Made by a program: the position numbers and the translations under genes. Below, piece by piece: positions 1 through 36,283 of a stretch of 38,328 bases of DNA. Below the pieces are notes generated by a model that was not told the origin of the DNA, searched no databases, and saw nothing but the letters and a program-made list of their open reading frames with translations. This DNA is from Magnetococcales bacterium (GTDB lineage: Bacteria; Pseudomonadota; Magnetococcia; Magnetococcales; Magnetaquicoccaceae), in the NCBI GenBank assembly GCA_015233035.1, contig JADFYM010000007.1, forward strand, positions 1 to 38,328. The letters run 5' to 3'. The first letter of the stretch is position 1. Every line of letters begins with the position of its first letter.

Positions 1-10
1 TGCTCAATAA

Positions 11-55
11 TGAACTGTTTCATTTTACTCTCCAGGTGAGTTGAAAAACAGTTCA
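11..55. repeat. Perfect 10-bp inverted repeat near window start
   Basis: TGAACTGTTT at 11-20 and AAACAGTTCA at 46-55 are exact reverse complements separated by 25 nt. The surroundings (1-189) are AT-richer than the rest and contain no convincing gene. It could be a hairpin, an operator or the end of an element cut by the window edge; nothing decides between these. Confidence 0.4.
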
Positions 56-189
56 AATTGTATCATATTAATGTGCAAATTCAAATGGTTGACGATCATT
101 TCCCCGCAACGAAGTCACCGATTCAGGAGATAATATTGAAACACCACCAAGATGAATTGTGACTCTGGAAGAATTCCAGTAATATCATG

Positions 190-1053
190 CTAAATTGTCT
201 CCGGCCACGGCCAACGACACACCGAAAACGGCGTGGTCGCAGCCAGAGCGAGGGCGGCCCGGTAGCCCGCCGGGGCGGGCAAATCGTGGAGTTGACAACA
301 GTCCACATCGGCAGGCTGCCAGGGGGTGGCCAGCAACCGGGCCGGTTGGGCCGGATCGACACTGACGGTAAATTGGGTGAGCAGGCGGGCCAGGCTGGCA
401 CCATGCCGCTTGATATAGGCCTCCTTGCGGGTCCAACAGGCAAAAAAGGCCTCATTGACCTGCGCCGTCGGCAAAGCTGCGAGGGCGGCGGCCTCCGCGC
501 TGGCAAAAAATCGCCGCGCCAAGTGCAGCCGTTTGGCCGGAGGGGCCGGACGTATCTCTTCCAGATCGACGCCCAGGTCCGTCTCCCGACTGAGGGCATA
601 CCAGATCCACTGCCCGGCATGGGTCACATTAAAACAGAGCGATACACCCGGATGATCCAGGTGGGGTTTGCCATCTGGACCATAACGAAACCGAACAGAT
701 GCGGGCGGAAGATCCAGATAATGGCCCAGCAAGGCACGCAAGGTGCCCCGCACGGCCACAAAGGCCAGACGTTGCCTCTCCAGGGCAAAGGTCGGGAGGC
801 GGTGTTGCTCCTCGGACGACAGGAGGGCATACAGGCGATCCCCCTCGGCGGGAAGCGGCCAGCGCGTGCGGTGCCAAAGATGGATCTCGTTGTGCGCCAG
901 ATCCGTTGGCAGTGCGGCTTGGCAACCTGCCGTCCATGCATGGTTCCTTGTGACCAGGTCCTGTTTTGTGCGACAGTGTGCCGCGCTGCGGGCAGACGTT
1001 GATCCGCCGCCGGGCCCAACCTCCTCAGACACGGTATAATGGTTGACTATCAT
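190..1053 (-). CDS. 4'-phosphopantetheinyl transferase, Sfp/AcpT superfamily
   Basis: Transfers the phosphopantetheine arm of CoA to a serine of acyl or peptidyl carrier proteins, in the cytoplasm. The family signature is clear: GPDGKPHL, then FNVTHAG, then the Mg-binding LGVDLEEI, then FFACWTRKEAYIKRHG with the W-x-x-KEA helix. The total of about 287 residues is slightly long for Sfp-type enzymes because of a Gly/Ser-rich N-terminal stretch of about 40 residues before the recognisable domain (NEIHLWHR). The start is uncertain. The ATG at 1053 shares a palindromic CATG with the start of the divergent cysC gene and lacks a well-placed ribosome site; a later non-ATG start is possible, and the open frame extends up to 1098. 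No carrier-protein or synthase genes are nearby, so the substrate is unknown. Confidence 0.85.
   Translation of the reverse strand: MIVNHYTVSEEVGPGGGSTSARSAAHCRTKQDLVTRNHAWTAGCQAALPTDLAHNEIHLWHRTRWPLPAEGDRLYALLSSEEQHRLPTFALERQRLAFVAVRGTLRALLGHYLDLPPASVRFRYGPDGKPHLDHPGVSLCFNVTHAGQWIWYALSRETDLGVDLEEIRPAPPAKRLHLARRFFASAEAAALAALPTAQVNEAFFACWTRKEAYIKRHGASLARLLTQFTVSVDPAQPARLLATPWQPADVDCCQLHDLPAPAGYRAALALAATTPFSVCRWPWPETI
1035..1040 (+). promoter_or_regulatory. Possible -10 box for cysC
   Basis: A perfect TATAAT lies 11 bp before the cysC ATG at 1052. No -35 box sits at normal spacing (GGGCCC occupies the place), and transcription from it would give an almost leaderless message. It also lies within the opposite-strand PPTase frame if that gene starts at 1053. 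Weak call. Confidence 0.3.
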
Positions 1054-1717
1054 GGACAATATCTCTCGCCCTCCCTTCATCATCTGGCACGATGCCACTA
1101 TAACACGCGAACAACGCGAAAAGCAAAACCGTCACAAGGGCATCGTCTTATGGTTTACCGGTCTGTCCGGGTCAGGCAAATCGACGCTGGCCCATGCCCT
1201 GGAAGAACATTTGCACCAGCGCGAATGCCATACCTTTGTCCTGGATGGGGACAATCTGCGCCATGGTTTGTGCCGCGACCTGGGTTTTTCCGCCGAATCC
1301 CGCCGCGAAAATATTCGCCGGGCGGCCGAGGTGGCCAAACTGTTTGTCGAAGCGGGCATGATCGCCCTGACCGCCTTTATCTCCCCCTTTCAGGCCGACC
1401 GGCAGCAGGCCAGAAAGCTGATTGGCCCGGAAAGTTTTGTGGAAATCTATTGCCAGTGCCCCCTGGATGTGTGCGAACAACGCGACAGCAAAGGGTTGTA
1501 CCAGAAGGCCAGAGCGGGCCTGATTGCCGAATTTACCGGCATATCATCGCCTTATGAAGAGCCGGAGCAGGCGGATCTGGTGCTGAATACCGCCACCCAT
1601 TCCGTGGAAGCCTGTGTGGCCATCATGGCGGCCTACTTGCAGCCACGGTTGTCGGATGTGCTGGATTTGGCAACCGTCGCAACAAAAATTTCAACACCGC
1701 TTGACAGCCGGACCTGA
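1052..1717 (+). CDS. cysC: Adenylylsulfate (APS) kinase CysC
   Basis: Phosphorylates adenosine 5'-phosphosulfate at the 3' position with ATP to give PAPS, the donor for sulfotransfer or sulfate reduction. The 221-residue protein has the N-terminal WHDATITREQRE segment typical of the family, the P-loop GLSGSGKS, DGDNLRHGLC, the REN(I)RR region and FISPFQADR. Length and order fit a stand-alone CysC with no fused ATP sulfurylase. A TTG at 1043 extends the frame by three codons, but the ATG at 1052 matches the family start. There is no obvious Shine-Dalgarno sequence. The gene is divergent from the PPTase and followed by tRNA-Leu; no other sulfur genes are visible. Confidence 0.93.
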   Translation: MDNISRPPFIIWHDATITREQREKQNRHKGIVLWFTGLSGSGKSTLAHALEEHLHQRECHTFVLDGDNLRHGLCRDLGFSAESRRENIRRAAEVAKLFVEAGMIALTAFISPFQADRQQARKLIGPESFVEIYCQCPLDVCEQRDSKGLYQKARAGLIAEFTGISSPYEEPEQADLVLNTATHSVEACVAIMAAYLQPRLSDVLDLATVATKISTPLDSRT

Positions 1718-1744
1718 CCTTTGTATCCTGCAAATCGTCTTTGG

Positions 1745-1831
1745 GCCCAGGTGGCGGAACTGGTAGACGCGCTAGATTCAGGTTCTAGTATCTGCAAGGA
1801 TATGGGAGTTCGACTCTCCCCTTGGGCACCA
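1745..1831 (+). tRNA. tRNA-Leu, anticodon CAG
   Basis: The 87-nt cloverleaf can be folded by eye. Acceptor GCCCAGG pairs with CTTGGGC, the anticodon stem CTAGA/TCTAG encloses the loop TTCAGGT (anticodon CAG), and the long variable arm is typical of class II leucine tRNAs. The T-arm is GGGAG-TTCGACT-CTCCC, the discriminator base is A, and the CCA end is encoded at 1829-1831. Confidence 0.96.
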
Positions 1832-1899
1832 AACACCCTTCAGGACTTGACCCCATTCGGTTGAGTCCTTTTTTATTGCCCTCGACCGGACACAGCACC

Positions 1900-2538
1900 A
1901 TGTCACGCCTGATTGCCATCGGGGATATTCACGGCGAGTACGACAAGCTGCGAGGCTTGCTCGACCGTATCCAACCCACCCCCGATGATCAGTTGGTCTT
2001 TCTGGGCGATTATATCGACCGTGGCCCCAAAAGCTGCGAAGTGGTCCTCTGCTTGATGGATTTGCTGGCCGCCTGCCCCCGGACCATTCTGCTCCAGGGC
2101 AATCATGAGCAGTGCATGCTCGATCATCTGGTGGGATCCAAAGCGGCCAGGTGGCAGGATGACACCCGGGAAGGCTGGCCCGACGGCGGTGCGGAAACCC
2201 TGGCCAGCTATCGGCAAAACCAGATATCCCTCCGGGATCATCTCCCTTTTTTTACCCGCATGCCCCTCTCCTGGACCACAGAGACCTTTTTTTTCTGTCA
2301 TGCCGGCATCCACCCCCAACGCGCCCTGGACGCACAACGGCCCAGCGATTTATTGCATATCCGCCATCCCTTTCTGAGTTGGCCCCATCCGTTGCCCAAA
2401 ATAATCGTCCACGGCCACAGCTATACTCCAGACCCCTTCGCCCATCCCCACCGCATCGGTCTGGATACCGGGTCCAGGCTGGGCGGACCACTGACCGCCG
2501 TGATTCTGCCGGAAAAGAGCCTGCTGCAATTCACCTGA
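1900..2538 (+). CDS. PPP-family serine/threonine (bis-nucleotide) phosphatase
   Basis: Metallophosphoesterase of the PPP type, about 212 residues, like bacterial PrpA/ApaH-related phosphatases. Dinuclear-metal motifs appear in order: GDIHGEYDKL near the N-terminus, GDYIDRGPKS, GNHEQ and, towards the C-terminus, CHAGIHP and HGHSYTP. Size and motif spacing fit the protein phosphatase 1 group more than ApaH, but substrate cannot be told from sequence. The frame is open from 1822 inside the tRNA; the ATG at 1900 directly precedes the conserved fold and is chosen. The gene lies 68 bp after tRNA-Leu with no clear promoter of its own. Confidence 0.88.
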   Translation: MSRLIAIGDIHGEYDKLRGLLDRIQPTPDDQLVFLGDYIDRGPKSCEVVLCLMDLLAACPRTILLQGNHEQCMLDHLVGSKAARWQDDTREGWPDGGAETLASYRQNQISLRDHLPFFTRMPLSWTTETFFFCHAGIHPQRALDAQRPSDLLHIRHPFLSWPHPLPKIIVHGHSYTPDPFAHPHRIGLDTGSRLGGPLTAVILPEKSLLQFT

Positions 2539-2568
2539 ATGATCATCAAGATTGATTCACCCCCTTCT

Positions 2569-2646
2569 TTGACAAAAATTTAATAATTTTTGTCGCACAT
2601 TTGATTATCTTTCTGATTTTTAGTGGCGTAGAATGCAACCCATCAT
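2569..2646 (+). promoter_or_regulatory. Promoter/operator region related to the kdp upstream region
   Basis: AT-rich segment that aligns without gaps to 6387-6464 upstream of the kdp genes; by eye about 57 of 78 positions are identical. Shared parts are TTGACA at 2569, a T/A-rich core, TTTGATT at 2600 and TAGAAT at 2629 (TAGAGT in the kdp copy), all at identical spacing. This copy holds a perfect 9-bp inverted repeat, GACAAAAAT (2571-2579) and ATTTTTGTC (2586-2594). Inference: a shared regulator, KdpE being the obvious candidate because kdpDE lie nearby. Confidence 0.55.
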
Positions 2647-2769
2647 TCGTTCGGCCTGGATCGTCGTTTGGGCCATGCGCAGAACGTGATGTTGATCAAG
2701 CAAGCGCAGCGAATCGGTCTGGTTATCGTCGTGGCAGTCGGCCACGGCATTGAATCGGGGAGAAATCAA

Positions 2770-2874
2770 ATGAAAAAGTTGCTCAAGAAATATCTCAAAC
2801 GGGCCATGGCCATGGAGCATGCCTCCCGGAAGACAAGAAAGTTGCACGCCTGGCTGGAATCGACCGACGACTGA
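2770..2874 (+). CDS. Small basic protein, 34 residues, unknown
   Basis: Not recognised. The ORF begins MKKLLKKYLKRAMAMEH and ends in a short acidic tail (ESTDD); the body is strongly cationic with Lys/Arg-Leu periodicity that could form an amphipathic helix. A good ribosome site (GGGGAG, 7 nt before the ATG at 2770) supports translation. The same frame is open from an ATG at 2668, which would give 68 residues, but no ribosome site was seen there. It lies downstream of the region that resembles the kdp upstream segment, with a leader of about 120 bp. Could be a small regulatory or membrane-associated peptide, or not a gene. Confidence 0.4.
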   Translation: MKKLLKKYLKRAMAMEHASRKTRKLHAWLESTDD

Positions 2875-2928
2875 AGGTGGGCGATCTGGTGAACCAATCA
2901 AGCTGATTGGAATGGCAGGTGAGCTTCG

Positions 2929-2985
2929 CCCCTGCCCACCGGGGGAGATAATCTCCCCCGGCCCCCCATTGAATAACAACAGCCC
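2929..2985 (+). repeat. Partial GC-rich palindromic repeat (class 1)
   Basis: Contains the class-1 hairpin GGGGGAGATAATCTCCCCC followed by a C-rich run and AATAACAAC. Only one end of the approximately 300-bp element is present, just upstream of a complete copy. Confidence 0.7.
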
Positions 2986-2999
2986 CACCCAATCAGCCC

Positions 3000-3329
3000 G
3001 GTTGAACCCATCCCGTTACACACATCGCAAAAAGTTATTATTATTCATGTGGATCCGGGGGAGATTATCTCCCCCAGTGGGGTCCAGGGGCAACGCCCCT
3101 GGTGGGGTCCGGGGCGGAGCCCCGGAAAAACAAGCCCCTGGAGTTGGAACCACCAACCTGTTGCTACTGTGCTGTTTTTTAATTCGCAGCCCCTTGATAC
3201 CCCTGGCGGGGCTCCGCCCCGAACCCCGCCAGGGGCTTTGCCCCTGGACCCCACCAGGGGGATAATCCCCCTGGACCCCTGCAAATATCAACGACTTGTT
3301 GAGATGTGTGTAATGGCATGGGTTGAACC
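3000..3329 (+). repeat. Full-length class-1 multi-hairpin repeat
   Basis: About 330 bp with imperfect terminal inverted repeats. The left end reads GGTTGAACCCAT then TTACACACATC; the right end read inwards on the minus strand gives GGTTCAACCCAT then TTACACACATC. Inside are several GC-rich hairpins (AGATTATCT core, CCAGGGGCAACGCCCCTGG, CCGGGGCGGAGCCCCGG) and a less structured centre. It fills the space between the small plus-strand ORF and the minus-strand RCK gene. Related full copies lie at 25771-26048, 28886-29490 (interrupted) and 36011-36283. Confidence 0.85.
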
Positions 3330-3346
3330 ACTACACCTGTCCTGTT

Positions 3347-3853
3347 TCAGAACACATCATGCGCGAAAGCATTCAAACTCCAGTCGCGCCCAGCCTGTGC
3401 TGCGTGCAACAACGTGCCCAACGGTGCCTGCTGGACGACCGTCTGGTCGGGATGGATCAATTGCTGGGCAATGCGCAACGCCATATCACGAGACGGCAAC
3501 AATACTTCCGTCGCTCCGACGGTCTGAATTGCCTTGGCCTGCTGCTCGTTGTCCGCCCGCACCAGAATGCGGGGCACGCCGTGCTGACGCAAGGCAATGG
3601 TAATCAGCACAGTGGCCTCAAAATGGTTGCGCAAGGCCACAATGGCCGTGCCCACCGCAAAGGCCCCCACCACCTCCATGCGGTCAGCATGGGTGGCGTC
3701 ACAACAGACCGCTTTTGACACCACACCCTGGATGACATTGACCGGTTCCTTTGCCCGATCCACAGCCAGCACATAAGCCCCACTCGCAGACAAGGTCTTG
3801 GCCACATAACTGCCGAAGACACCCAAACCCACTACCAGAAATGTACCGGACAT
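3347..3853 (-). CDS. RCK_N (TrkA/KtrA-type) NAD-binding protein, short form
   Basis: Regulatory nucleotide-binding protein of the kind that gates potassium channels and transporters at the inner face of the membrane. The 168 residues begin TFLVVGLGVFGSYVAKTL, a GxGxxG Rossmann motif, with the acidic end of strand 2 at VLAVDR and later ILVRADNEQQAKAIQTVGA, as in KtrA/TrkA. The usual RCK_C (TrkA_C) domain is absent: the protein stops about 50 residues short of a standard KtrA of about 220. Start ATG at 3853 is preceded by AGGA at a suitable distance; the frame is open to 3904. It follows kup by 47 bp on the same strand, so the two are probably co-transcribed. No KtrB/TrkH membrane partner is visible, so Kup or a distant TrkH may be the target. 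Confidence 0.8.
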   Translation of the reverse strand: MSGTFLVVGLGVFGSYVAKTLSASGAYVLAVDRAKEPVNVIQGVVSKAVCCDATHADRMEVVGAFAVGTAIVALRNHFEATVLITIALRQHGVPRILVRADNEQQAKAIQTVGATEVLLPSRDMALRIAQQLIHPDQTVVQQAPLGTLLHAAQAGRDWSLNAFAHDVF

Positions 3854-3900
3854 CGTGCGATCCTCGTTTTGTTCAAGGTTGATAGGCTCTGTCGCGTTCC

Positions 3901-5811
3901 TCATTCCAGGCTGCCCAGGACAATACGGGTGCCCAGGTTGACCGACTGCATGGGTGGCAGGTTAAAGTAGGAGGAACGTTCGTCACTGCGATACATGCTG
4001 AGAAAAAGTTTCAACCGCCAATTGGCCATCCCTGGATTGCGGCCCAGCACAAAATCGGCCTTGCCCAGGAAGAAATGGGTATTTTCATCGATCAGCAACG
4101 CCCCCCCCGCCAACGCCAGTCGGCAAGCCGCGAGTGCCTGCGGCACATCGGTGTCTTCCATATAGCCATAACGGATCACAATGCGATAACAGCCATTGAA
4201 CAAAACGTCCACCTGAACCCGTTCCGCCTCGCCCAGGTGCGGCACATCCACGGTTTGGACGTTCAGCAGGATGATCCGTTCATACATAACCTTGGTATGC
4301 TTCACCATTTCCATCATGGCGGGAGGAGCCATGTCGATAGTGCGGGCCATGAAAACGGCGGTGCCCGGCACCCGATGGCCGGGTACCATGTCCAGCCCCC
4401 GCAAAAAGGTGTCCAGTGGGATGTGCTCCTTCTGCACGGCATGGTTGACCAGATCCCGGCCCTTGCGCCAGGTGGACATCAGGAGAAAAATGACTGCCCC
4501 CATGCCGATGGGAAACCAGCCACCGTCCATAAATTTGAGGGCATTGGCCCCGAAAAAGGCCATATCCACCGTCAAGAAAATCAGCAAAAGCGGCAGGGCC
4601 ACCAACAGACTCCAGGAAAACATACGGCGCAACACAATGCCAAAGGCCAGGACGGTCACCGCGACCATGGTTCCGGTCACGGCAATCCCATAGGCCGCCG
4701 CCAGATTGTCCGAACTCTTGAAACCCAGCACCAGGGCGACCACCGCGATCAACAACAACCAGTTGGTGACCGGCACATAGATCTGGCCGAATTCCGAGGG
4801 CGAGGTGTGGACCACCCGAAAACGGGGCAGATAGCCCAACTGGATGGCCTGCCGGGTGGCGGAAAAGGCCCCGGAAATCATCGCCTGCGAGGCAATGATG
4901 GTCGCCGAGGTGGCCAACACCACCATGGGCAGCACCCCCCAGTCGGGCACACACAGGTAGAAAGGATTTTTCACCATCTCCGGGTCTCCCAGGATCAGGG
5001 CACCCTGGCCCAGATAGTTCAAGATCAAGGCAGGAAAGACAAAGGCTCCCCAGGACCAGTTGATGGCCGATTTGCCGAAATGGCCCATGTCCGCATAGAG
5101 GGCCTCGGCCCCGGTCACCGCCAGAAAGACCGACCCCAGCACCATGAAGGTGTTCTCTCCGGCACTGCCAAACAAAAACCGGAACCCGTACAGGGGGTTC
5201 AAGGCCGCCAAAATTTCGGGATGCCGGAAGATCTCTTTCAACCCCACCAGGGCGATGGCCACAAACCAGGCCGCACAAACGGGACCGAAAAAACGCCCCA
5301 GCTTGGCCGTCCCCTTGCTCTGGAACATAAACAGCAAAACGATCACCATAAGAGTAATGGGAATAATGTAGGGCTGGAAGGCAGGGGTCACCACCTCCAA
5401 CCCTTCCACCGCCGACAACACCGAGATGGCCGGGGTGATCGCCCCATCCCCAAAAAAGAGCGATACCCCGATCATGCCCGCAATCATGATGGCACGCCGA
5501 AGCCGGACATTGCCTTGACAAAACCGTTTGGCCAGCGTCACCAGCACCAGATTGCCCCCTTCGCCATGATCATCGGCCCGCATGATAAAAAACTGATATT
5601 TCACGGTCAGCACAATCATCAGGGTCCAAAGAATGAGCGAAATGACACCCAACACATTGTCATGGGTGGGGGTGGCCGCATGTGCCCCGCCCAGAGCCTC
5701 TTTGACGGCATAGAGCGGACTGGTGCCAATGTCACCAAATACCACGCCAATGGCACCAATCATTAAAACAATAAGACGATTTTTGTGTACCGCTTCTGTT
5801 GGTTCGTTCAT
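3901..5811 (-). CDS. kup: Kup low-affinity potassium transporter
   Basis: Potassium:proton symporter of the KUP/HAK family in the inner membrane. The 636-residue product has the family start GVVFGDIGTSPLYAVKEAL, followed by FIMRADDHGEGG, FFGDGAITPAISVLSAVEG, DMGHFG and about twelve hydrophobic helices, then a C-terminal hydrophilic domain of about 170 residues. Length is close to E. coli Kup (622). The ATG at 5811 is chosen because GGAGG lies just upstream; the frame is open to 5880. The next gene on the strand is an RCK_N protein, suggesting regulated uptake. It is divergent from the kdp operon, with 676 bp between, so constitutive and high-affinity potassium systems lie together. Confidence 0.95.
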   Translation of the reverse strand: MNEPTEAVHKNRLIVLMIGAIGVVFGDIGTSPLYAVKEALGGAHAATPTHDNVLGVISLILWTLMIVLTVKYQFFIMRADDHGEGGNLVLVTLAKRFCQGNVRLRRAIMIAGMIGVSLFFGDGAITPAISVLSAVEGLEVVTPAFQPYIIPITLMVIVLLFMFQSKGTAKLGRFFGPVCAAWFVAIALVGLKEIFRHPEILAALNPLYGFRFLFGSAGENTFMVLGSVFLAVTGAEALYADMGHFGKSAINWSWGAFVFPALILNYLGQGALILGDPEMVKNPFYLCVPDWGVLPMVVLATSATIIASQAMISGAFSATRQAIQLGYLPRFRVVHTSPSEFGQIYVPVTNWLLLIAVVALVLGFKSSDNLAAAYGIAVTGTMVAVTVLAFGIVLRRMFSWSLLVALPLLLIFLTVDMAFFGANALKFMDGGWFPIGMGAVIFLLMSTWRKGRDLVNHAVQKEHIPLDTFLRGLDMVPGHRVPGTAVFMARTIDMAPPAMMEMVKHTKVMYERIILLNVQTVDVPHLGEAERVQVDVLFNGCYRIVIRYGYMEDTDVPQALAACRLALAGGALLIDENTHFFLGKADFVLGRNPGMANWRLKLFLSMYRSDERSSYFNLPPMQSVNLGTRIVLGSLE

Positions 5812-6386
5812 GAAACCTCCGGCCAGAGTTACGTTAAATTGATAAATTCCCCGTCGAGTATAGGGAGACAACGATTTCACCTTATAAATGGAATTTGATA
5901 GCAGAACAACTTAAAAATAAAATTAATTATATGGTAAAAACATCAAAATTTTATAGAAACCGGTTCAAGAAGAATAAAAACAGCAAAAACTTTTGCGGTA
6001 AAAAGACAAAGATTCGGCCAGTGCTGGGGAGGCGGAGAACCGCCTCCCCAGACCCCTCCACCTTTTTTTTCGATCATTATCAATGGGGCAGGCGGGGGAT
6101 TATCCCCTCTGGCGGGGTCCAGGGGCGACGCCCCCGACAACGACAGCGACGATTCAAAACAACCCGGTTGCCCCCCATCCCAGTCACCCTGTGGCAATCC
6201 ATGGCGCAAAAACACAAAAATATTGAAAACAATGCAATAATGGAATACAGTACAGCCTCCAATGTGTTGCGGTGGTGGAAAGAGCGTGCACCTGCGCTGA
6301 AAGCCACCAACAGCCAAACCGATCAGGACGCATCAAAAGCAAGCCGGAAATCTCAAAATTTTATCAAGACACCGTCACATTCTTAA
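5812..6386. other. Intergenic region between kup and kdp with partial repeat
   Basis: No supported gene. The first 190 bp are very AT-rich and probably hold the kup promoter. At about 6020-6140 there is a GC-rich hairpin (GGGGAGGCGG and CCGCCTCCCC around GAGAA) and a truncated class-1 piece (CGGGGGATTATCCCC, CCAGGGGCGACGCCCCC). The rest shows nothing recognisable. Confidence 0.6.
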
Positions 6387-6464
6387 TTGACAAAAATTTA
6401 ATATTTTTAATCAAACATTTGATTACCGCTTTCCTCTTTTTTTGTGTAGAGTACGGCCCATTAT
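6387..6464 (+). promoter_or_regulatory. Probable kdp promoter and operator
   Basis: Lies just upstream of the first kdp ORF. It has TTGACA at 6387, the arms AAAAAT and ATTTTT around TTAAT, a perfect 7-bp inverted repeat AATCAAA (6409-6415) and TTTGATT (6418-6424), a T-run and TAGAGT at 6447. T-rich sites upstream of kdp are known targets of KdpE in enterobacteria. The near-copy at 2569-2646 keeps the same spacing. Confidence 0.6.
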
Positions 6465-6487
6465 CAATTTCACCTGAAGGAGCTGTC

Positions 6488-6577
6488 ATGGACGTTGTCT
6501 ATCTTGCCTTGGCCGTCGGCTTTTTTGCCCTATCGGCCGCCCTGGTTTCCCTGTTCGAGCGATTACGGAGACGATAA
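6488..6577 (+). CDS. Tiny membrane protein heading the kdp operon
   Basis: 29 residues, starting MDVVYLALAVGFFALSAAL and ending FERLRRR: one hydrophobic helix with a positive C-terminal tail. The ATG at 6488 is preceded by AAGGAG at good spacing. The stop abuts the ATG of the KdpF-like ORF (TAA at 6575-6577, ATG at 6578), so the two are translationally adjacent. Similar very short ORFs precede kdpF in various proteobacteria; their function is not defined. Interpreted as a possible accessory peptide of the Kdp complex. Confidence 0.7.
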   Translation: MDVVYLALAVGFFALSAALVSLFERLRRR

Positions 6578-6670
6578 ATGAGCCCACTGTATTTGATTGG
6601 CCTGGTGGTGACGGTTGCCGTGTTCGTTTACCTGGTCATCGTCTTGTTTTTACCGGAGAAATTTTCATGA
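6578..6670 (+). CDS. kdpF: KdpF-like small subunit of the Kdp potassium ATPase
   Basis: 30 residues beginning MSPLYLIGLVVTVAVFVYLV, a single membrane helix ending in LPEKFS. Size, position directly in front of the kdpABC genes and hydrophobic profile fit KdpF, which stabilises the KdpFABC complex in the inner membrane. It starts immediately after the preceding stop, and its own TGA overlaps the next ATG (ATGA, 6667-6670). Its first 24 residues resemble the N-terminus of the EAL protein at 18239. Confidence 0.78.
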   Translation: MSPLYLIGLVVTVAVFVYLVIVLFLPEKFS

Positions 6671-6906
6671 ACATCGATATTCACTCCAGCACGGGTATCG
6701 CCCTGGCCTCTCTGTTGGCCCTCTCCTGGCCCGCCGCCTACCTGATGAGTCGTATACATACGGGCCAAGGGAATCAGTGGGTTGACGTCCACCGCCCTGC
6801 CATGCGCAGCGATTGTTCTGGTGCGTCGTCGGCGCACCCGGTCAATGCCTTTCGCATGGGCATCAACCCAGACTATCCACCCTTTTCCGGGAAAATGGTG
6901 CCATGA
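6667..6906 (+). CDS. Coupled 79-residue membrane ORF between kdpF and kdpA, unknown
   Basis: Not a recognised family. One predicted helix near residues 9-28 (GIALASLLALSWPAAYLMS) is followed by a polar tail of about 50 residues. The case for a real gene is the arrangement: its ATG overlaps the kdpF stop (ATGA at 6667-6670) and its TGA overlaps the kdpA start (ATGA at 6903-6906), so it is coupled on both sides. It could be an extra Kdp subunit, or only a translational bridge to kdpA. The C-terminal half has no evident fold. Confidence 0.5.
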   Translation: MNIDIHSSTGIALASLLALSWPAAYLMSRIHTGQGNQWVDVHRPAMRSDCSGASSAHPVNAFRMGINPDYPPFSGKMVP

Positions 6907-8710
6907 CCATCAACGGCTATCTTCAGCTTATTTTCTATGTGGCAGCTTTGCTGCTGCTTGCCTGGCCTCTGGGCTTGTACATGGCCAAAATTTATGGGGA
7001 GGTACTCCCCGCCAGCGTGCGTTGGCTCTCCCCCGTGGAAGAAGCCTTTTACCGCTTGTGCGGCGTGCGGCACAGCGATGACATGTCCTGGACCCGGTAC
7101 GCCTTCGCGGTGCTGATTTTCAATCTGCTCGGTTTCCTGGCGGTGTACGCGCTGCAACGGCTTCAGTTATGGTTGCCGTTCAATCCCCAGGCCATGGCCA
7201 ATGTGACCCCGGACAGTTCCTTCAACACCGCCGTCAGTTTTGTCAGCAATACCAACTGGCAGGGCTATGGCGGCGAGTCAACCATGTCCTACCTGACCCA
7301 AATGCTGGGCCTGACCGTGCAAAATTTTGTCTCGGCGGCCACCGGCATGGCGGTGATGGCGGCCTTGATGCGGGCCTTCACCCGGCGGGAGGAGACCGGC
7401 ATCGGCAACTTCTGGATCGACATGACCCGTTCCACCCTCTACATCCTGCTGCCCATGAGCATCGTGTTGTCCCTGCTTCTCGTCAGCCAGGGGGTGCCGC
7501 AGACCCTCGCTCCCTACCAGACTGCGCAACTGATGCAGGAATTGGCCTATGACGATCCAGTCAACGGCCCCGATGGCCAGCCCCTCAAGGATGAAAAAGG
7601 GCAACCGGTCACCGAGAAAAAGACGACCAAGGAGCAATCCATTGCCCTGGGACCGGTAGCTTCGCAGGTGCCATCAAGCAATTGGGCACCAATGGCGGTG
7701 GTTTTTTCAATGCCAACTCCGCCCACCCCCTGGAAAATCCCACGCCCTTTGCCAACTTTCTGGAAATGCTCTCCATCCTGCTGATTTCGGCGGCCTTCTG
7801 CATCGCCTTCGGCCAGTTTGTCGGTGATTTGCGCCAGGGCAAGGCCATCCTGGCGGCCATGACGATTGTCTTTGTCGCCCTTCTGGCCCTTTGCGTCGGA
7901 GCGGAACAGTCCGGCAATCCGCTGTTCGAGCGGTTGGGGGTGGACACCCATGCCTCCAGTCAATCGTCCGGTGGCAACATGGAAGGCAAGGAGACCCGGT
8001 TTGGCATCGTCAATTCGGCCATCTGGGCCACGGCCACCACCGCCGCTTCCAATGGCTCGGTCAATGCCATGCACGATTCCTTCACTCCCCTGGGTGGACT
8101 GGTGCCCATGTGGATGATCCAACTGGGCGAGGTGATCTATGGCGGGGTCGGTTGCGGGTTGTATGGCATGATCATCTTTGCCCTGGTGGCGGTCTTTGTC
8201 GCCGGTCTGATGATCGGTCGCACCCCGGAATATCTGGGCAAAAAGATCGGGGCCTTCGAGATCCAGATGTCGGCGGTCGCGGTCATCACCCCCTGTCTGG
8301 TGGTGCTGGTCGGCACGGCGGTCGCGGTGGTGAGTGAGGCAGGACTGGCGGGTATCGCCAATCCCGGTATTCATGGCTTTTCGGAGATTCTCTATGCCTT
8401 CTCTTCGGCGGGCAACAATAACGGCAGTGCCTTTGGCGGTCTGTCGGTCAACACCCCGTTCTACAACACCATGCTGGGGTTCGCCATGCTCCTGTCCCGC
8501 TATTGGCTGATCATACCGGCCTTGGCCATCGCCGGTTCCGTGGCATCCAAAAAGACTGTCCCCTCCTCGGCCGGAACCCTGCCCACCCATACCCCCCTGT
8601 TTGTGGCCCTGCTGATCGGGACGGTGATTATTGTCGGTGCATTGACTTTTCTGCCCGCGCTCGCCCTCGGTCCGATTGTGGAACACGTACATATGATCAA
8701 CGGACATTGA
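6903..8710 (+). pseudogene. kdpA: KdpA, potassium-binding subunit of Kdp ATPase, with one-base frameshift
   Basis: Channel-like subunit that selects and translocates potassium in KdpFABC. The first part reads MTINGYLQLIFYVAALLLL through NTNWQGYGGE and QNFVSAATGMAV to LGPVASQV; the second resumes in another frame with [15 protein letters not shown] and runs to the TGA at 8710. The break is near 7668-7672. The family expects GPVASQ-x-AIKxLGTNGGG, and adding one G to GTGCCATCAAG (giving GTGGCCATC) restores it exactly. Repaired, the protein would have about 602 residues against 557 in E. coli, with intact motifs on both sides. Either a sequencing or assembly error, or a recent real lesion; the intact kdpB, kdpC, kdpD and kdpE favour an error or a very young mutation. 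The start overlaps the previous stop. Confidence 0.9.
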
Positions 8711-12815: not shown

Positions 12816-15506
12816 ATGACTCCTGATTCCCTGCACACCCGACCCGATCCCGATGTCATTCTCGCCCAGTTGACAGCCGAGACATCCCGCGCGGATCGGG
12901 GCAAGTTGAAGGTCTTTTTTGGAGCCTGCCCCGGGGTGGGCAAGACCTATGCGATGTTGACCGCCGCCCAGGTCTTGCACACCCAGGGGATGGATGTGGT
13001 GGCTGGCGTGGTGGAGACCCACGGCCGCCGCGAGACCGCCGAGTTGATGCAACGGCTCGACGTGCTGCCCCGCTGCCGGATCGAATACAAGGGTCACATC
13101 CTGGAGGAATTCGATCTGGATGCGGCCTTGCGTCGCAAACCCCAACTGATCCTGATGGATGAACTGGCCCATTCCAACGCCCCCGGCTCCCGCCATCCCA
13201 AACGGTGGCAGGATATTATGGAGTTGCTGGGCGCAGGCATCGACGTGTACACCACCGTCAACGTCCAGCATGTCGAAAGCCTGGTCGATGTCATCGGCAA
13301 GATTACCGGTGTGCGCGTGCTGGAGCGGGTGCCCGACCATGTCATCGACCAGGCGGACGAAATGGTGCTGGTAGACCTGCCCCCCGAGGAGTTGCTGCAA
13401 CGACTGCGGGAGGGCAAGGTCTATATCTCCCATCAAGCGGAACGGGCCATGGAACATTTTTTCCGCAAGGGCAATCTGCTGGCCCTGCGGGAACTGGCGT
13501 TGCGCCGCACCGCCGACCGGGTGGATGGCGACGTGCGCGCCTGGCGACGGGAAAAATCGGTAACCACCGTCTGGCCGACCCGGGAATTGGTGCTGGTCTG
13601 CGTGGGACCGGGACCGGACAGTGAAAAACTGGTGCGTCGCGCCGCCCGCCGGGCCAACCAGACCGGCGCGCCCTGGCATGCCATCGCCATCGAGACACCG
13701 TCCATGCACAACCTGCCGGAAGCGGCCCGGGTGCGTGTTATCAACATTCTGAAATTGGCCCAGGAGATGGGCGCGAATACGGCCAACCTGTCCGGCCCGG
13801 ACCCCGTGGAGGTCGCCGTCGCCTACGCCCATGAACACAATCTGGGCACCCTGCTGGTGGGACGGGACCGCTATCGACGACTGCCCTGGCAACATGGTTT
13901 TGCCGAAAGGCTGGGTCGCCTGGCCCCGGACCTGGAACTCCTCCAGATAGCCCGTGAGGATGACGAACAGGAGACCACCAAGCCACTCCCCGCGCCCAAA
14001 TCCCGTGGCCCCACCGTCTGGCGTCCCCATCTGCTGTCACTGCTCAACGTCGCCCTGGCCACGATTGTGAGTACGCCGTTGCGTGATCATCTCGATTTGG
14101 CCAACATTGTCATGATTTTTCTGCTGGCCGTGGTCTTCACTGCCATCCGTTCGGGACGCGGGGCGGCCGTGCTGGCGGCGTTTCTCTCCGTGGCCGCCTT
14201 CGATTTTTTCTTTGTCCCGCCCCGCTTTTCGTTTGCCGTCTCGGACGTGCAATATCTGGTCACCTTCGCGGTCATGCTGACCGTGGCCCTGGTTGTGGGC
14301 CAACTCACCGCCGGTCTGCGCTTCCAGGTTTTGACCGCCCGCAAACGGGAACGGCGGATTCAGGCCCTCTACGAAATGTCCCGCGATCTCTCCAGTGCCA
14401 TGCGGGTGGAACAGATTGTCGAGATCTGCCAACGTTTTATCAAACGGGGTTTCAATGCCTCGATGGCCGTCTTCGTCAATGGGCAGGAACGCCTCCAACT
14501 GGCCGACGGCTCGGCCAATCTCGGTGCCGTCGATCCGGGTATTGCCCAATGGAGCTTTGACCATGGCCAAAATGCCGGGTTGGGCACCGATACCCTGCCC
14601 TCGGCCCATGCTCTGTATGTCCCGCTCAAGGCTCCCACCCACCTGTGTGGGGTATTGGCCCTGGTGCCGGACGAGGCAACCTGGCAACTGCCGATGGAGC
14701 AACAGCAACTGCTCGACACCAGTGCCACCCTGATCGCCATCGCCATGGAACGGATCCACTATGTCGCCTTGGCCAAAGATGCCCAGGTCAGCATGGAATC
14801 CGAGCGTCTGCGCAACTCCCTGCTGTCTGCCATTTCGCACGATCTGCGTACCCCGTTGACGGTCATCACCGGTCTGGCCGAGGCCATGCAGATGGCCACG
14901 CCGACCTTGCCCGAACCCCATGCCGGTCTCGCCAAGGCCATACGGGACGAGGTATCGCATACCATCACCATGGTCAACAATCTGCTGGACATGGCCCGGA
15001 TGCAAATGGGCAACATTGTCTTGAACCGGGGCTGGCAGACACTGGAAGAGGTGATCGGCCTCTCCCTGAGCAATTGCGCGCCCCTGCTCACCCGTCATGT
15101 CGTGCGCGTCGAACTGGCCGCCGGGCTGCCCTTGCTGGAGTTGGACACCGGACTCATGGAGCGGGTGTTCAACAATTTTCTGGAAAACGCCGCCAAATAT
15201 ACCCCGCCGGGGAGCATCGTCACCATTGCCGCCTGCCAGGATGGGGCCTTTGTGAAAGTTTCGGTGAGCGATAACGGGCACGGTGTCCCGCCCGGCATGG
15301 AAAAAAAGTTGTTTGAAAAATTTACGCGGGGCAAGGTGGAATCCACCGTGGCCGGTTTTGGCTTGGGCCTGGCCATTGTGCGTACCATTGTCGAGGCCCA
15401 TGGCGGTTCGGTGTGGGCGGAAAGTCCACCCGAAGGGGGATCCCGCTTTGTCCTGCTCCTGCCCATAGGCAATCTGCCCGACATGCCGGAGGAAACCGAT
15501 GGCTGA
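12816..15506 (+). CDS. kdpD: KdpD, potassium/turgor sensor histidine kinase
   Basis: Membrane kinase that phosphorylates KdpE when potassium is scarce. The 896 residues carry the whole domain series: N-terminal KdpD domain with Walker A GACPGVGKT (36-44), MDELAHSNAPGSRHPKRWQD and VYTTVNVQHVESL; a Usp-like domain (about 250-370, LVGRDRYRR); four close membrane helices (about 405-500, IVMIFLLAVVFTAIRSG to ALVVGQLTAGL); a GAF-like domain (about 510-660); HisKA with SHDLRTPLTVI (His675); and HATPase_c with NFLENAAKYTPPG, SDNGHGVP and GFGLGLAI. It overlaps kdpE by 8 bp. Its membrane/GAF segment is repeated in the two proteins downstream. Confidence 0.97.
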   Translation: MTPDSLHTRPDPDVILAQLTAETSRADRGKLKVFFGACPGVGKTYAMLTAAQVLHTQGMDVVAGVVETHGRRETAELMQRLDVLPRCRIEYKGHILEEFDLDAALRRKPQLILMDELAHSNAPGSRHPKRWQDIMELLGAGIDVYTTVNVQHVESLVDVIGKITGVRVLERVPDHVIDQADEMVLVDLPPEELLQRLREGKVYISHQAERAMEHFFRKGNLLALRELALRRTADRVDGDVRAWRREKSVTTVWPTRELVLVCVGPGPDSEKLVRRAARRANQTGAPWHAIAIETPSMHNLPEAARVRVINILKLAQEMGANTANLSGPDPVEVAVAYAHEHNLGTLLVGRDRYRRLPWQHGFAERLGRLAPDLELLQIAREDDEQETTKPLPAPKSRGPTVWRPHLLSLLNVALATIVSTPLRDHLDLANIVMIFLLAVVFTAIRSGRGAAVLAAFLSVAAFDFFFVPPRFSFAVSDVQYLVTFAVMLTVALVVGQLTAGLRFQVLTARKRERRIQALYEMSRDLSSAMRVEQIVEICQRFIKRGFNASMAVFVNGQERLQLADGSANLGAVDPGIAQWSFDHGQNAGLGTDTLPSAHALYVPLKAPTHLCGVLALVPDEATWQLPMEQQQLLDTSATLIAIAMERIHYVALAKDAQVSMESERLRNSLLSAISHDLRTPLTVITGLAEAMQMATPTLPEPHAGLAKAIRDEVSHTITMVNNLLDMARMQMGNIVLNRGWQTLEEVIGLSLSNCAPLLTRHVVRVELAAGLPLLELDTGLMERVFNNFLENAAKYTPPGSIVTIAACQDGAFVKVSVSDNGHGVPPGMEKKLFEKFTRGKVESTVAGFGLGLAIVRTIVEAHGGSVWAESPPEGGSRFVLLLPIGNLPDMPEETDG

Positions 15507-16203
15507 CACCCAACACGCCACCCCATTGATCGTCCTCATTGAGGATGAACCCCAGATTCGCCGTTTTGTCCGGGCCGCCCTGGAGGCGGAACAGTATGCG
15601 GTGGCGGAAGCGGAGACAGGCACCCAAGGGTTGATGGATGTCGGCACCCGGCGGCCTGATCTGCTCATCGTGGATCTGGGTCTGCCGGACATGGATGGCA
15701 TCGATGTCATCCAGGATATCCGTTCGTGGTCCAATCTGCCCATCCTGATTCTTTCCGCCCGGACCAGCGAGGCGCACAAGGTCAAGGCTCTGGATGTGGG
15801 GGCCGACGATTATCTGACCAAGCCCTTTGGCATCCCGGAACTGCTGGCCCGGGTGCGCGCCCTGCTGCGCCGCTCGGCCCGTGCCCATACGGACGATCTG
15901 CCCGTGGTCCGGTTCGGGGAGGTGGAGGTCAATCCGCTGCAACGCACGGTGACCCGCAACGGGGAAGCCGTCCATCTGACCGCCATCGAGTATCGTCTGC
16001 TGATGCAACTGATCACCAACGCCGAACGGGTGATGACCCACAGCACCCTGATCCGGGAAGTCTGGGGACCGCATCATGCCGACAAAATTCATTATCTGCG
16101 GGTTTACATGTCCAACCTGCGCCACAAGCTGGAAGCGGATCCCAACGCTCCCCGCTATATCCTGACCGCATCCGGGGTGGGCTATCGGCTGGTTTTGGCG
16201 TGA
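15499..16203 (+). CDS. kdpE: KdpE, OmpR/PhoB-type response regulator
   Basis: Transcription activator of the kdp operon. It has 234 residues: receiver domain with acidic pair E15-D16, phosphoacceptor Asp59 in IVDLGLPDMDG, and Lys in YLTKPFGIPELLARV; then a winged-helix domain ending TASGVGYRLVL with RVYMSNLRHKLE. The ATG at 15499 lies inside the end of kdpD and its TGA overlaps the GTG start of the next kinase, so kdpD, kdpE and the hybrid kinase are translationally coupled. The T-rich palindromic regions at 6387 and 2569 are candidate binding sites. Confidence 0.96.
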   Translation: MADTQHATPLIVLIEDEPQIRRFVRAALEAEQYAVAEAETGTQGLMDVGTRRPDLLIVDLGLPDMDGIDVIQDIRSWSNLPILILSARTSEAHKVKALDVGADDYLTKPFGIPELLARVRALLRRSARAHTDDLPVVRFGEVEVNPLQRTVTRNGEAVHLTAIEYRLLMQLITNAERVMTHSTLIREVWGPHHADKIHYLRVYMSNLRHKLEADPNAPRYILTASGVGYRLVLA

Positions 16204-18005
16204 AACCGGTGCTCACCTGCCCTGCCATCCTGTTGGTCTTGGCCCTGGTCATCGGTCAACTGACCGCCGTACTGCTCTATTATGCCTATTCGGCAAAACG
16301 ACGGGAACAGCGCACGCGCTCCCTGTACGACATGTCCCGCGAGCTTTCCGGTGCCCTGAGCGTGGAACAAACCGTTGATATTTGCCAACGCTTTATCAAA
16401 CATGGGTTTGATGCCGCTGCCGTTGTCTGGCTGCCCAGAGAAAACGGGCACCTGCAATTGGCCACCGGGTTGGCCGACCTGGCGTCGGTCGATGCCAGTA
16501 TTGCCCAATGGAGCTTTGAGCATGGGCAGGTCGCCGGTTTGGGCACCGGGACCCTCCCTGCCGCTCAAGCCCTGTACGTACCGCTCAAAGCCCCCACCCG
16601 CCTTTGCGGGGTGTTGGTCCTGGTGCCAACCGGAGCGTTGTCCGCCGAGCAACAGCAATGGCTGGACACCTGTGCCACCCTGATCGCCATCACCCTGGAG
16701 CGGATCCATTGTGTCATCCTGGCCCGGGATGCCCAGGTCAGCATGACGGCGGAACGTCTGCGCCATACCCTGTTGCAACAGGCCAAAGAGCAGGCGGAAC
16801 AAGTGGCCAAAGCCAAAAGCACCTTTCTGGCCACCATGAGCCACGAAATTCGCACCCCGTTGCACGCCATTCTGGGCATGTTGGAGTTGTTGCATGAGGC
16901 TCCCCTGGCCGATCACCAGCGGGAACAGGTACACATCGCCTTTGCCGCCAGCCGGGGTTTGCTGGCCTTGATCAATGAGATTCTGGATTATTCCAAGATG
17001 GAGGCGGGCGCGTTCACCCTGGACCAGGTGGATTTTAATCTGCGCACCCTGATGAACGAAGTCGCCCTCGTCATGACGCCGTTGGCACAGCAAAAAAAAA
17101 TTGAACTCCGCATCGTCCTGCCAACGGAACAGCATACGGCGGTCAGCGGCGATCCCAACTGTTTGCGGGCGATCCTGGTCAATCTGCTCAACAATGCCAT
17201 CAAGTTTACCCCGGAAGGCGGCCTGGTGACCTGTCATGGCGGACCGGTGGGCCGGAATGAGACAGGTCTGATCGAGTGGCGGTTTGAGGTACGGGATACC
17301 GGCATCGGCATTGCGGAGGCCCAGCGGACCGCCATCTTTGCGCCCTTCCTCCAGGGGGACAAAACGACCACCCGCCAATACGGGGGCACCGGGCTGGGTC
17401 TGGCGATCACCCAACGCTTTATCCACATGATGGGCGGTGACATTCAGGTGGAGGCCAATTCCCATGCCGCCTCCGGTAGTGCTTTTTATTTTACCATCCG
17501 GTTGTTGCTCCGGGCCGAGGCGGCCACCTTGGGTGAACCGGAGCGGTTGGCAGACGGCACCCCGCCTGTCCAACCCGCTTATGCCGCCGATATTCTGGTA
17601 GTGGACGATCAGACCGTCAATCTGAAGGTGACGTGCGCCATGCTGGTCAACCAGGGGTGCGACCCCAAACGTATTGTCACCGCAACCAACGGTCAGCAGG
17701 CGGTGGAACAGTTTCAAAACGGTCGCTTTCACCTGGTTTTGATGGACTGCCAAATGCCGGTCATGGATGGCTGCCAGGCCACCGGTGCCATACGAGCCTG
17801 GGAACGCCACCACGGGCAGGCGTTGGTGCCCGTGGTGGCCTTTACCGCCGATGTGACCACCGAAAGCCGCCACCGGATACAAGTCGCCGAGATGAGTGAT
17901 TGTTTGACCAAACCGATCACCCTGGCTGATTTGCGCGCCATCTTGAGAAAACATATTGCCCACACCGACACCGCCACGCCATCCCACTCAAACAAGGTCA
18001 CATAA
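16200..18005 (+). CDS. Hybrid histidine kinase with KdpD-derived GAF sensor and receiver
   Basis: 601 residues from a GTG that overlaps the kdpE stop (GTGA at 16200-16203). Domains: one membrane helix (about 5-27, ending LVIGQLTAVLLYYAY, like the fourth helix of KdpD); a GAF-like segment of about 150 residues closely matching KdpD (LYDMSREL, QRFIKHGF, ALYVPLKAPTRLCGVLVLV); HisKA with His215 in [15 protein letters not shown]; HATPase_c with NLLNNAIKFTPEG, DTGIGIA and GGTGLGLAI; and a C-terminal receiver with Asp516 in [13 protein letters not shown]. It lacks the KdpD ATP-binding/Usp part and three helices. No HPt domain is attached, so the phosphate must pass elsewhere. It looks like a partial duplication of kdpD fused to a hybrid kinase core. 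Confidence 0.92.
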   Translation: MKPVLTCPAILLVLALVIGQLTAVLLYYAYSAKRREQRTRSLYDMSRELSGALSVEQTVDICQRFIKHGFDAAAVVWLPRENGHLQLATGLADLASVDASIAQWSFEHGQVAGLGTGTLPAAQALYVPLKAPTRLCGVLVLVPTGALSAEQQQWLDTCATLIAITLERIHCVILARDAQVSMTAERLRHTLLQQAKEQAEQVAKAKSTFLATMSHEIRTPLHAILGMLELLHEAPLADHQREQVHIAFAASRGLLALINEILDYSKMEAGAFTLDQVDFNLRTLMNEVALVMTPLAQQKKIELRIVLPTEQHTAVSGDPNCLRAILVNLLNNAIKFTPEGGLVTCHGGPVGRNETGLIEWRFEVRDTGIGIAEAQRTAIFAPFLQGDKTTTRQYGGTGLGLAITQRFIHMMGGDIQVEANSHAASGSAFYFTIRLLLRAEAATLGEPERLADGTPPVQPAYAADILVVDDQTVNLKVTCAMLVNQGCDPKRIVTATNGQQAVEQFQNGRFHLVLMDCQMPVMDGCQATGAIRAWERHHGQALVPVVAFTADVTTESRHRIQVAEMSDCLTKPITLADLRAILRKHIAHTDTATPSHSNKVT

Positions 18006-25718: not shown

Positions 25719-25770
25719 GAAGCATAAACTCCGCAGTGGCTAAGGGTGGTCAGGAGCATTCCATTATATT

Positions 25771-26048
25771 GGCAGGGGTCCAGGGGGATTATCCCCCTGG
25801 TGGGGTCCAGGGGCAAAGCCCCTGGCGGGGCTCGGGGCAGAGCCCCGGCTCGGGACATCAAGGGGCTGTGGATCAAAAAATGACACAGTAGCAACACGTT
25901 GGTGGTTCAAACTCCAGGGTCTTGTTTTTCCGGGGCGAAGCACCCGGACCCCACCAGGGGCGTTGCCCCTGGACCCCACCGGGGGAGATAATCTCCCCCG
26001 GACCCCCATAAATAATAACAACTTTTCGCGATGTATATAACGGGATGG
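25771..26048 (-). repeat. Full-length class-1 repeat
   Basis: On the minus strand it begins CATCCCGTTATATACATCGC, continues with the AGATTATCT hairpin, CCAGGGGCAACGCCCCTGG and TGTTGCTACTGTG centre, and ends with CCAGGGGGATAATCCCCCTGG and CCCCTGCCAATAT, colinear with the copy at 3000. It fills the whole gap between two minus-strand genes and stops 1 bp short of the HD-GYP stop codon. Confidence 0.85.
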
Positions 26049-26049
26049 G

Positions 26050-35947: not shown

Positions 35948-36010
35948 TGTTGAACAATCTGAACAACCCCACCCGCAGGGTGGCGTCCACTCGCTCCGGT
36001 ACAGGCATCC

Positions 36011-36283
36011 CGTTAGACACATCGCACAAAGCTGTTATTATTCAATGGGGGTCTGGGGGAGATTATCTCCCCCAGTGGGGTCCAGGGGCAAAGCCCCTGG
36101 TGGGGTCTGGGGCGAAGCCCCGGAAAAACAAGACCCTGTGGGAAAAGCATCCAACGTGTTGCCACTGCGTGTTTTTTTGATTCGCAGCCCCTGGATGCCC
36201 CAAGACGGGGCTCTGCCCCGAACCCCGCCAGGGGCGTTGCCCCTGGACCCCACCAGGGGGATAATCCCCCTGGACCCCTGCCA
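36011..36283 (+). repeat. Full-length class-1 repeat
   Basis: Begins CATCCCGTTAGACACATCGC, with the AGATTATCT hairpin, CCAGGGGCAAAGCCCCTGG, CCGGGGCTTCGCCCCAG (complement), a TGTTGCCACTGCGTG centre and the terminal CCAGGGGGATAATCCCCCTGG. It fills the space between the convergent cytochrome and peroxiredoxin genes, ending about 8 bp from the latter's stop. Confidence 0.85.

What the first reader, a model, noticed from the sequence alone, without database searches (positions are those of the whole stretch)
2569..6464. Two distant regulatory regions are near-copies with identical spacing
2569-2646 and 6387-6464 align without gaps at about 57 of 78 positions, with TTGACA, TTTGATT and TAGA[AG]T at the same offsets (0, 31, 60). 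Each holds a different perfect inverted repeat (GACAAAAAT/ATTTTTGTC in the first, AATCAAA/TTTGATT in the second). One drives kdp; the other precedes a 34-codon basic ORF, so that ORF may belong to the potassium response.
Basis: partly seen in the sequence, partly recalled or inferred. Interest (0 to 1): 0.72.

Follow-up and report, generated by a model that had tools for sequence, protein, structure and literature searches.

The report
Potassium-regulon promoter before small protein
A bacterium of the magnetotactic group carries the promoter of its emergency potassium pump a second time in front of a tiny, previously unnamed basic protein, which suggests that this protein is made when potassium runs low.

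Summary
Windows 2569-2646 and 6387-6464 match at 57 of 78 positions; resampled sequences reach at most 43. The shared element is longer (about 104 bp) and has four copies in the 4.5-Mb assembly: two before kdp operons, two before paralogues of the 34-aa ORF. It is not a common dispersed repeat.

Twenty kdp promoters from relatives in the same order (Magnetococcales, going by the one named relative) align almost without gaps, with two boxes and a -10 but no -35. A model built only from those 20 finds the ORF's promoter in this whole genome (28.7 bits) above the genome's own kdp promoter (18.0), and the paralogous ORF's promoter too (24.1). In 31 genomes, 16 of its 21 non-training hits precede K+ genes (kup, trkH, trkA, kdpE, kdp accessory). 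KdpD and KdpE are encoded in the window.

The ORF is under purifying selection, predicts as one basic helix, and matches no Pfam or NCBIfam family; its function is not shown. Three divergent homologues in relatives lack the box, so K+ control looks lineage-specific. KdpE binding and K+ response remain untested.

The parts
2545..2648 (+). Element copy 1: promoter region of the 34-aa ORF (sORF1)
   Evidence: R1 and R2 model matches, ungapped alignment with three other copies
2568..2584 (+). Box 1, TTTGAC-N5-TTTAAT, at about -73 to -56 of the inferred start; candidate KdpE site
   Evidence: order-wide alignment A5 and half-site table; E. coli half-sites TTTATA-N5-TTTACA and position -72 to -50 from PMC3264566 passages; KdpE binding inferred
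2599..2616 (+). Box 2 region (ATTTGATTATCTTTCTGA), corresponds to TTTATT-GCCCA-TTTTGA of relatives, one base longer in this clade; overlaps the -35 position
2629..2634 (+). -10 hexamer TAGAAT
   Evidence: conserved column block CTAgcAT in A5
2757..2762 (+). Ribosome-binding site GGGGAG
   Evidence: sequence; comparable sites before the homologous ORFs
2770..2874 (+). sORF1, 34-aa basic protein MKKLLKKYLKRAMAMEHASRKTRKLHAWLESTDD
   Evidence: homologues C82 74%, G005 59%, G002 38% identity and G028; dN 0.15, dS 1.13 against C82 copy; no Pfam/NCBIfam family
6363..6467 (+). Element copy 2: kdp promoter region
6386..6402 (+). Box 1 of the kdp promoter, ATTGAC-N5-TTTAAT
6447..6452 (+). -10 hexamer TAGAGT of the kdp promoter
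6488..6577 (+). 29-aa kdp leader ORF (MDVVYLALAVGFF...), found in 19 of 20 kdp loci examined
   Evidence: no family match
6578..6670 (+). kdpF
   Evidence: Pfam PF09604, E 2e-7
6903..8710 (+). kdpA, reading frame broken near 7672 by one missing base relative to C230
12816..15506 (+). kdpD
   Evidence: NCBIfam NF007793, 1106.9 bits, cut-off 1123
15499..16203 (+). kdpE, inferred activator of the element
   Evidence: NCBIfam NF007820 best of 90 families, 291 bits, cut-off 325
3901..5880 (-). kup K+ transporter between the two element copies (ORF bounds; start codon uncertain)
   Evidence: NCBIfam TIGR00794, E 1.8e-169
3347..3904 (-). TrkA-N domain protein between the two element copies
   Evidence: Pfam PF02254, E 1.7e-17

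Best explanation
The two regions are copies of one K+-responsive promoter. At low K+ the sensor KdpD phosphorylates KdpE. KdpE then binds two sites in the element, box 1 at about -73 to -56 and box 2 across the -35 position, and recruits RNA polymerase to a -10 that has no good -35 of its own. One copy drives kdpFABC. The other drives an mRNA with a leader of about 125 nt that encodes a 34-aa basic helical protein. That protein is therefore an effector of the potassium-limitation response. My guess at its role is that it binds an anionic partner (membrane, nucleic acid, or a transporter/KdpD-type kinase) to tune K+ homeostasis. Shown here by sequence: copy number, homology with the order-wide kdp promoter, enrichment of that promoter type before K+ genes, coding selection on the ORF. 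Inferred: KdpE as the binding protein, induction by low K+, start site. Speculative: what the peptide does.
For: Four copies only in 4.5 Mb, two before kdp and two before the ORF family. Homologous element at the kdp promoter in G005 (63.5 bits) and G016 (29.1 bits). Order-wide two-box kdp promoter in 20 relatives. R2, built without this genome, finds sORF1 at 28.7 bits, sORF2 at 24.1 and own kdp at 18.0; the next hits score 13.2 and 13.1. At the 29 most conserved columns sORF1 matches the consensus at 23, kdp1 at 23, sORF2 at 22, and the kdp2 copy before a broken kdpA at 18. Of 21 non-training R2 hits at E<=1e-3 in 31 genomes, 16 precede K+ transport or kdp genes, including kdpE itself. All 7 genomes of 31 with no R2 hit also lack a kdpA match. 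Box 1 has the 6-5-6 spacing and position of the E. coli KdpE site. sORF2 follows a hybrid kinase whose membrane region is 68% identical to this KdpD. sORF1/sORF2 codon-position differences 6/2/15, dN/dS about 0.14.
Against: No binding or expression data. Homologous ORFs in G005, G002 and G028 have no R2 match in their loci at E<=2, so the protein family is not intrinsically tied to K+. Whole-alignment autocorrelation peaks at 32 bp, not at the 11 bp expected of KdpE half-sites, so the half-site reading leans on analogy. In this clade box 2 has drifted from the order consensus and carries one extra base. C230 and C82 are short contigs and may come from a second strain, which would reduce four copies to two kdp/ORF pairs. 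The window kdpA is frameshifted. E-values of the models are rough.
Confidence: 0.8

Rival explanations
1. The element is a duplication of the kdp promoter that happens to lie before the ORF and has no selected role there.
For: Homology runs about 104 bp, as a duplicated segment would; ORF homologues elsewhere lack it.
Against: Two ORF copies keep it, with 23 and 22 of 29 conserved columns intact, while upstream flanks are unrelated (14 to 23 of 60 identical in the four kdp/sORF comparisons). sORF1's copy scores higher than the kdp promoter itself against the foreign model.
Confidence: 0.1
2. The shared element is bound by another regulator (for example one reading the TTGA...TCAA or ATCAA...TTGAT dyads of this clade) that co-controls kdp and the ORF for a reason other than K+.
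Against: The dyads are not conserved across the order, whereas the two boxes are; hits of the box model are mostly K+ genes.
Confidence: 0.1
3. The functional product of the locus is a regulatory RNA or a longer fusion protein (68 codons from a TTG at 2668), not the 34-aa peptide.
For: The upstream frame is open and in frame in the window (ORF 2668-2874); a 22-nt leader segment resembles the C82 leader (score 34, best of 100 shuffles 24).
Against: The ORF is conserved from the same ATG in the four aligned copies, while in C82 the upstream frame ends with a stop overlapping the ATG; substitutions are mostly at third positions. No Rfam match besides a tRNA.
Confidence: 0.12
4. Chance similarity of AT-rich intergenic DNA.
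For: Both regions are AT-rich.
Against: 57 of 78 against at most 43 in 2000 local resamplings; independent model hits.
Confidence: 0.01

Closest known systems
E. coli kdpFABC promoter with its KdpE site
   Same: Direct-repeat half-sites 6-5-6 (TTTATA-N5-TTTACA), site at -72 to -50, before kdpF (PMC3264566 passages); box 1 here has matching spacing and position.
   Different: Here a second box overlaps the -35 position, and the promoter type also stands before kup, trkH, trkA, kdpE and the 34-aa ORF. In E. coli kdpFABC is described as the sole KdpE target, though the same paper adds three genes (PMC7657598 passages), and Trk and Kup as constitutive (PMC5458449 passages).
KdpF and other small proteins of cation transport operons
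   Same: Very small protein under the kdp-type promoter.
   Different: KdpF is hydrophobic and matches PF09604; the 34-aa protein is hydrophilic, pI 10.2, GRAVY -1.01, one predicted helix, no family match.
Pho box / PhoB promoters (recalled, apart from OmpR/PhoB class statements)
   Same: OmpR/PhoB-class activator site in place of a -35.
   Different: Box sequence and target genes are of K+ uptake; PhoB fits the window regulator less well than KdpE (174 against 291 bits).

Membership tests
KdpE-controlled (kdp-type) promoter | Homologous to promoters that stand before kdp in related genomes | tested here: met
   R2 from 20 other genomes finds sORF1 at 28.7 bits, E 3.7e-6 in the whole genome
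KdpE-controlled (kdp-type) promoter | 6-5-6 direct-repeat half-sites | tested here: inconclusive
   Box 1 reads TTTGAC-N5-TTTAAT, but autocorrelation of the alignment peaks at 32, not 11
KdpE-controlled (kdp-type) promoter | KdpD and KdpE encoded in the genome | tested here: met
   window 12816-16203 and a second pair on C375
KdpE-controlled (kdp-type) promoter | Binding of phosphorylated KdpE | not testable with these tools
   needs footprinting or EMSA
KdpE-controlled (kdp-type) promoter | Induction by low K+ | not testable with these tools
   needs expression data
Common dispersed repeat | Many copies unrelated to particular genes | tested here: not met
   3 blastn places with one query, 4 with model R1, all before kdp or the ORF
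KdpF | Match to PF09604/TIGR02115, hydrophobic | tested here: not met
   no match; GRAVY -1.01
Canonical sigma-70 promoter with TTGACA as -35 | 16-18 nt between TTGACA and the -10 | tested here: not met
   54 nt between them (offsets 0 and 60); not listed among 10 promoter-like sites

The most novel reading that the evidence does not exclude
Magnetococcales have an expanded KdpE regulon (kdp, kup, trkH, trkA, kdpE, a CBS protein), and in this lineage it has recruited an uncharacterised family of 34-aa cationic single-helix proteins. These would act as dedicated potassium-limitation effectors, possibly acting directly on K+ transporters, KdpD-type kinases or nucleic acids whose K+ counter-ions have become scarce.
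Probability: 0.4. Interest if true: 0.65.

Novelty: new variant of a known kind. Interest (0 to 1): 0.52.

Why it matters
In E. coli, KdpE is described as having kdpFABC as its sole target (PMC7657598, passages). A promoter type that recurs before several classes of K+ genes in one bacterial order, and before a tiny uncharacterised protein, would widen that picture. It also gives a direct entry point to a small protein family without a Pfam or NCBIfam name: its induction condition is predicted and can be tested with one low-K+ experiment.

Tried and rejected
The simple promoter scan did not list either site. The TTGACA-as--35 reading was rejected because of the 54-nt gap. Rfam gave only a tRNA. 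Pfam and NCBIfam gave no family for the ORF. Marginal sORF profile hits in G001 and G022 dropped out with the four-member profile. A position matrix flagged a site upstream of kup on the minus strand (window 5888-5957, 15.2), but R2 did not confirm it, so I do not claim it. I asked whether sORF1/kdp1 and sORF2/kdp2 elements co-evolve as pairs: informative sites were 3 for that pairing, 1 crossed, 0 for ORF-with-ORF, too few. I looked for homology between the sORF leaders and the kdp leader: scores 27 and 24 against shuffle maxima 25 and 25, not convincing. Literature searches for Magnetococcales with kdp, and for KdpE with small protein and potassium limitation, returned 0 papers each.

Rows dropped: from the 24 kdpA loci, A5 leaves out the two of this genome, L049 (contig too short), L059 and L060 (outside the order), and adds G005 (L016), giving 20 rows. 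The 29/13 column comparison leaves out intermediate columns. R2 was run on 31 genomes, all within the order, of the 48 genomes of the order that searched.
Full report
OBSERVATION. The window is contig C412 of a 4.53-Mb, 434-contig assembly. The one named relative found, which carries the ORF's homologue on a contig of the same number, length and place as G005:C164, is an uncultured Magnetococcales bacterium. The two regions agree at 57 of 78 positions; resampled sequences reach at most 43. All stated offsets and both inverted repeats are right.

EXTENT AND COPY NUMBER. A blastn of 2560-2660 against the whole assembly gave three places: itself, the kdp site, and C230:2554-2603. A pattern TTGAYT-N18..24-GTAGARTNC gave 3 matches forward, 0 reverse and 0 in the reversed control. 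The C230 place is again before a kdp operon, with a second kup divergent from it. Searching the 34-aa ORF in the assembly gave a second copy at C82:5692-5793, 74% identical. Reading upstream of it showed the same element. MAFFT places the four copies without internal gaps over about 104 bp. A sequence-only model of these four (R1) run on 61 genomes returns exactly four places in this genome, plus G005:C624 (63.5 bits) and G016:C143 (29.1 bits); the other hits are at E>=1e-3. Both of those lie directly upstream of the kdp leader ORF and kdpF. The segment is therefore kdp-promoter DNA, with extra copies before this ORF family, and not a common repeat.

ORDER-WIDE KDP PROMOTER. kdpA was found in 23 of 61 genomes. 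The regions upstream of kdpF were collected and aligned by Gibbs sampling without gaps. Including G005, 20 promoters from other genomes form alignment A5 with one single-base indel. The consensus is TTGAC-n5-TTTnAT, then about 14 nt, then CTTTAT-n-GCCCATTTTGAT, about 11 nt and CTAgcAT. With the -10 at offset 59-64, box 1 lies near -73 to -56 and box 2 crosses the -35 position. Box 1 can be read as half-sites TTTGAC-N5-TTTTAT, and box 2 as TTTATT-GCCCA-TTTTGA. The E. coli KdpE half-sites are TTTATA and TTTACA with 5 bp between, in a 23-bp element at -72 to -50 (PMC3264566, passages only). The overall autocorrelation peaks at 32 bp, about the box-to-box distance, not at 11, so the half-site reading is plausible but not proved.

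INDEPENDENT TEST. Model R2 was built from A5 only, without any sequence of this genome. In the whole assembly (all 11 matches up to E 10) it gives: C375:7339 46.5 bits; C19:8971 39.3; C391:13264 38.5; sORF1 (2567) 28.7; C375:13055 24.4; sORF2 (C82:5183) 24.1; own kdp (6386) 18.0; then C138 13.2, C377 13.1, second kdp copy C230 12.0, C164 9.1. The promoter of the ORF is thus a better kdp-type promoter than that of kdp itself in this genome. Earlier, a simple matrix scanned over the contigs then at hand also put sORF1 (5.6), kdp (4.9) and sORF2 (2.0) among its top five, after C375:13056 (40.9) and a site upstream of kup (15.2).

WHAT THE BOX MARKS. In 31 genomes R2 has 36 hits at E<=1e-3. Fifteen are training members. 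Of the other 21: ten precede kup (G009, G016:C21, G015:C43, G005:C453, G017, G011:C102, G004:C125, G004:C507, and C391 and C375:13055 of this genome), two a TrkH-family transporter (G012:C223, G010), one a TrkA-N protein (G016:C112), one a KdpE-like regulator divergent from kdp (G006), two kdp accessory/KdpF-like ORFs (G018; C19 of this genome), one a CBS-domain protein (C375:7339), two the 34-aa ORFs, and two have no assigned gene (G015:C184, G001:C2). Several of these names rest on sequence resemblance read by eye; families were run for representatives. All seven genomes without any R2 hit at E<=0.1 (G007, G008, G022, G023, G024, G027, G028) have no kdpA match. On C375 the box heads kup - kdpD lacking its N-terminal domain - kdpE.

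THE ORF. sORF1 and sORF2 differ at 6, 2 and 15 first, second and third codon positions; dN 0.155, dS 1.13. Homologues with the same start and length occur in G005 (59%), G002 (38%) and, more weakly, G028 (E 5e-4): 4 of 48 genomes of the order including this one. pI values are 10.1-11.1 and GRAVY about -1. AlphaFold2 without an alignment gives one helix, residues 2-33, pLDDT 83.4, pTM 0.33. No Pfam or NCBIfam match to the family at E<=1 except a sub-threshold MazE-like hit for the G005 protein (the G028 protein was not run). R2 finds nothing up to E 2 in the loci of the G005, G002 and G028 homologues, so K+ control appears to be a property of this lineage.

NEIGHBOURHOOD. In the window the ORF lies beside TrkA-N, kup and kdpFABC-DE genes (kdpB and kdpC named by eye). 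On C82 the second copy follows a 1266-aa hybrid kinase (DUF4118, GAF, PAS, HisKA, HATPase, two receivers, Hpt) and a receiver-HD protein. The kinase's membrane region is 68% identical to the window KdpD. The conserved columns of the promoter survive before both ORFs (23 and 22 of 29) and before kdp1 (23), but less before kdp2 (18), whose kdpA is cut at C230:4547. This is what one would expect if the ORF promoters are under selection.

MECHANISM. Best reading: KdpD senses low K+, KdpE-P binds the two boxes and activates a promoter lacking a -35, at kdp and at the ORF alike. The binding protein and the induction are inferred from the regulon pattern and from E. coli. The role of the peptide is open.

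KNOWN AND NEW. In E. coli kdpFABC is described as the sole KdpE target, though the same study adds three genes by combined ChIP-exo and expression data (PMC7657598, passages), and Trk and Kup as constitutive (PMC5458449, passages). A kdp-type box before kup, trk, kdpE and a small basic protein in Magnetococcales would be an expanded regulon. I found no paper on kdp in Magnetococcales (0 papers) or on KdpE with a small protein under potassium limitation (0 papers); the library is open-access PMC only.

LIMITS. Short contigs C230 and C82 could be from a second strain. Window 1-2900 (cysC, tRNA-Leu, phosphatase; names by eye except the tRNA) shows no second copy at E<=1e-20, but only 40 of 639 candidates were scored; this argues against a fully duplicated strain but does not settle it. 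Model E-values are rough.

Noticed in passing
window 3000-3329 (and 25766-26050, 36006-36281): A roughly 310-bp G+C-rich dispersed repeat, matching in tens of places of the assembly in both orientations (72 matching rows in all for query 1-5000, 40 of 639 candidates scored).
   Followed up: no
window about 7672: kdpA reading frame is broken by one missing base relative to the C230 copy; assembly error or real.
   Followed up: partly
window 6488-6577: A 29-aa hydrophobic ORF ending in LRRR directly before kdpF, found in 19 of 20 kdp loci examined, without a Pfam or NCBIfam family.
   Followed up: partly
L073 4056-9399 (C375): Second KdpDE system: box, kup, KdpD lacking the N-terminal sensor domain, KdpE.
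   Followed up: partly
L010 4547 (C230): Second kdpA stops abruptly and the sequence departs from kdpA near the contig end, as at an insertion or recombination junction.
   Followed up: no
L009 2241-2696 and 2693 (C82): The frame upstream of sORF2 ends in a TGA that overlaps the ATG of sORF2 (ATGA), suggesting possible translational coupling; in the window the upstream frame is instead in frame with the ORF.
   Followed up: no
window 16212-16781 and 18440-19243: Two further kinase/signalling proteins downstream of kdpE carry regions 62% and 66% identical to the KdpD membrane/GAF part, apparently spread by duplication.
   Followed up: no
element copies, offsets 0-3 and 24-27: A clade-specific dyad TTGA-N20-TCAA overlaps box 1 in kdp1, kdp2, sORF2 and G005 but is only partial in sORF1; could be a second operator.
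   Followed up: no
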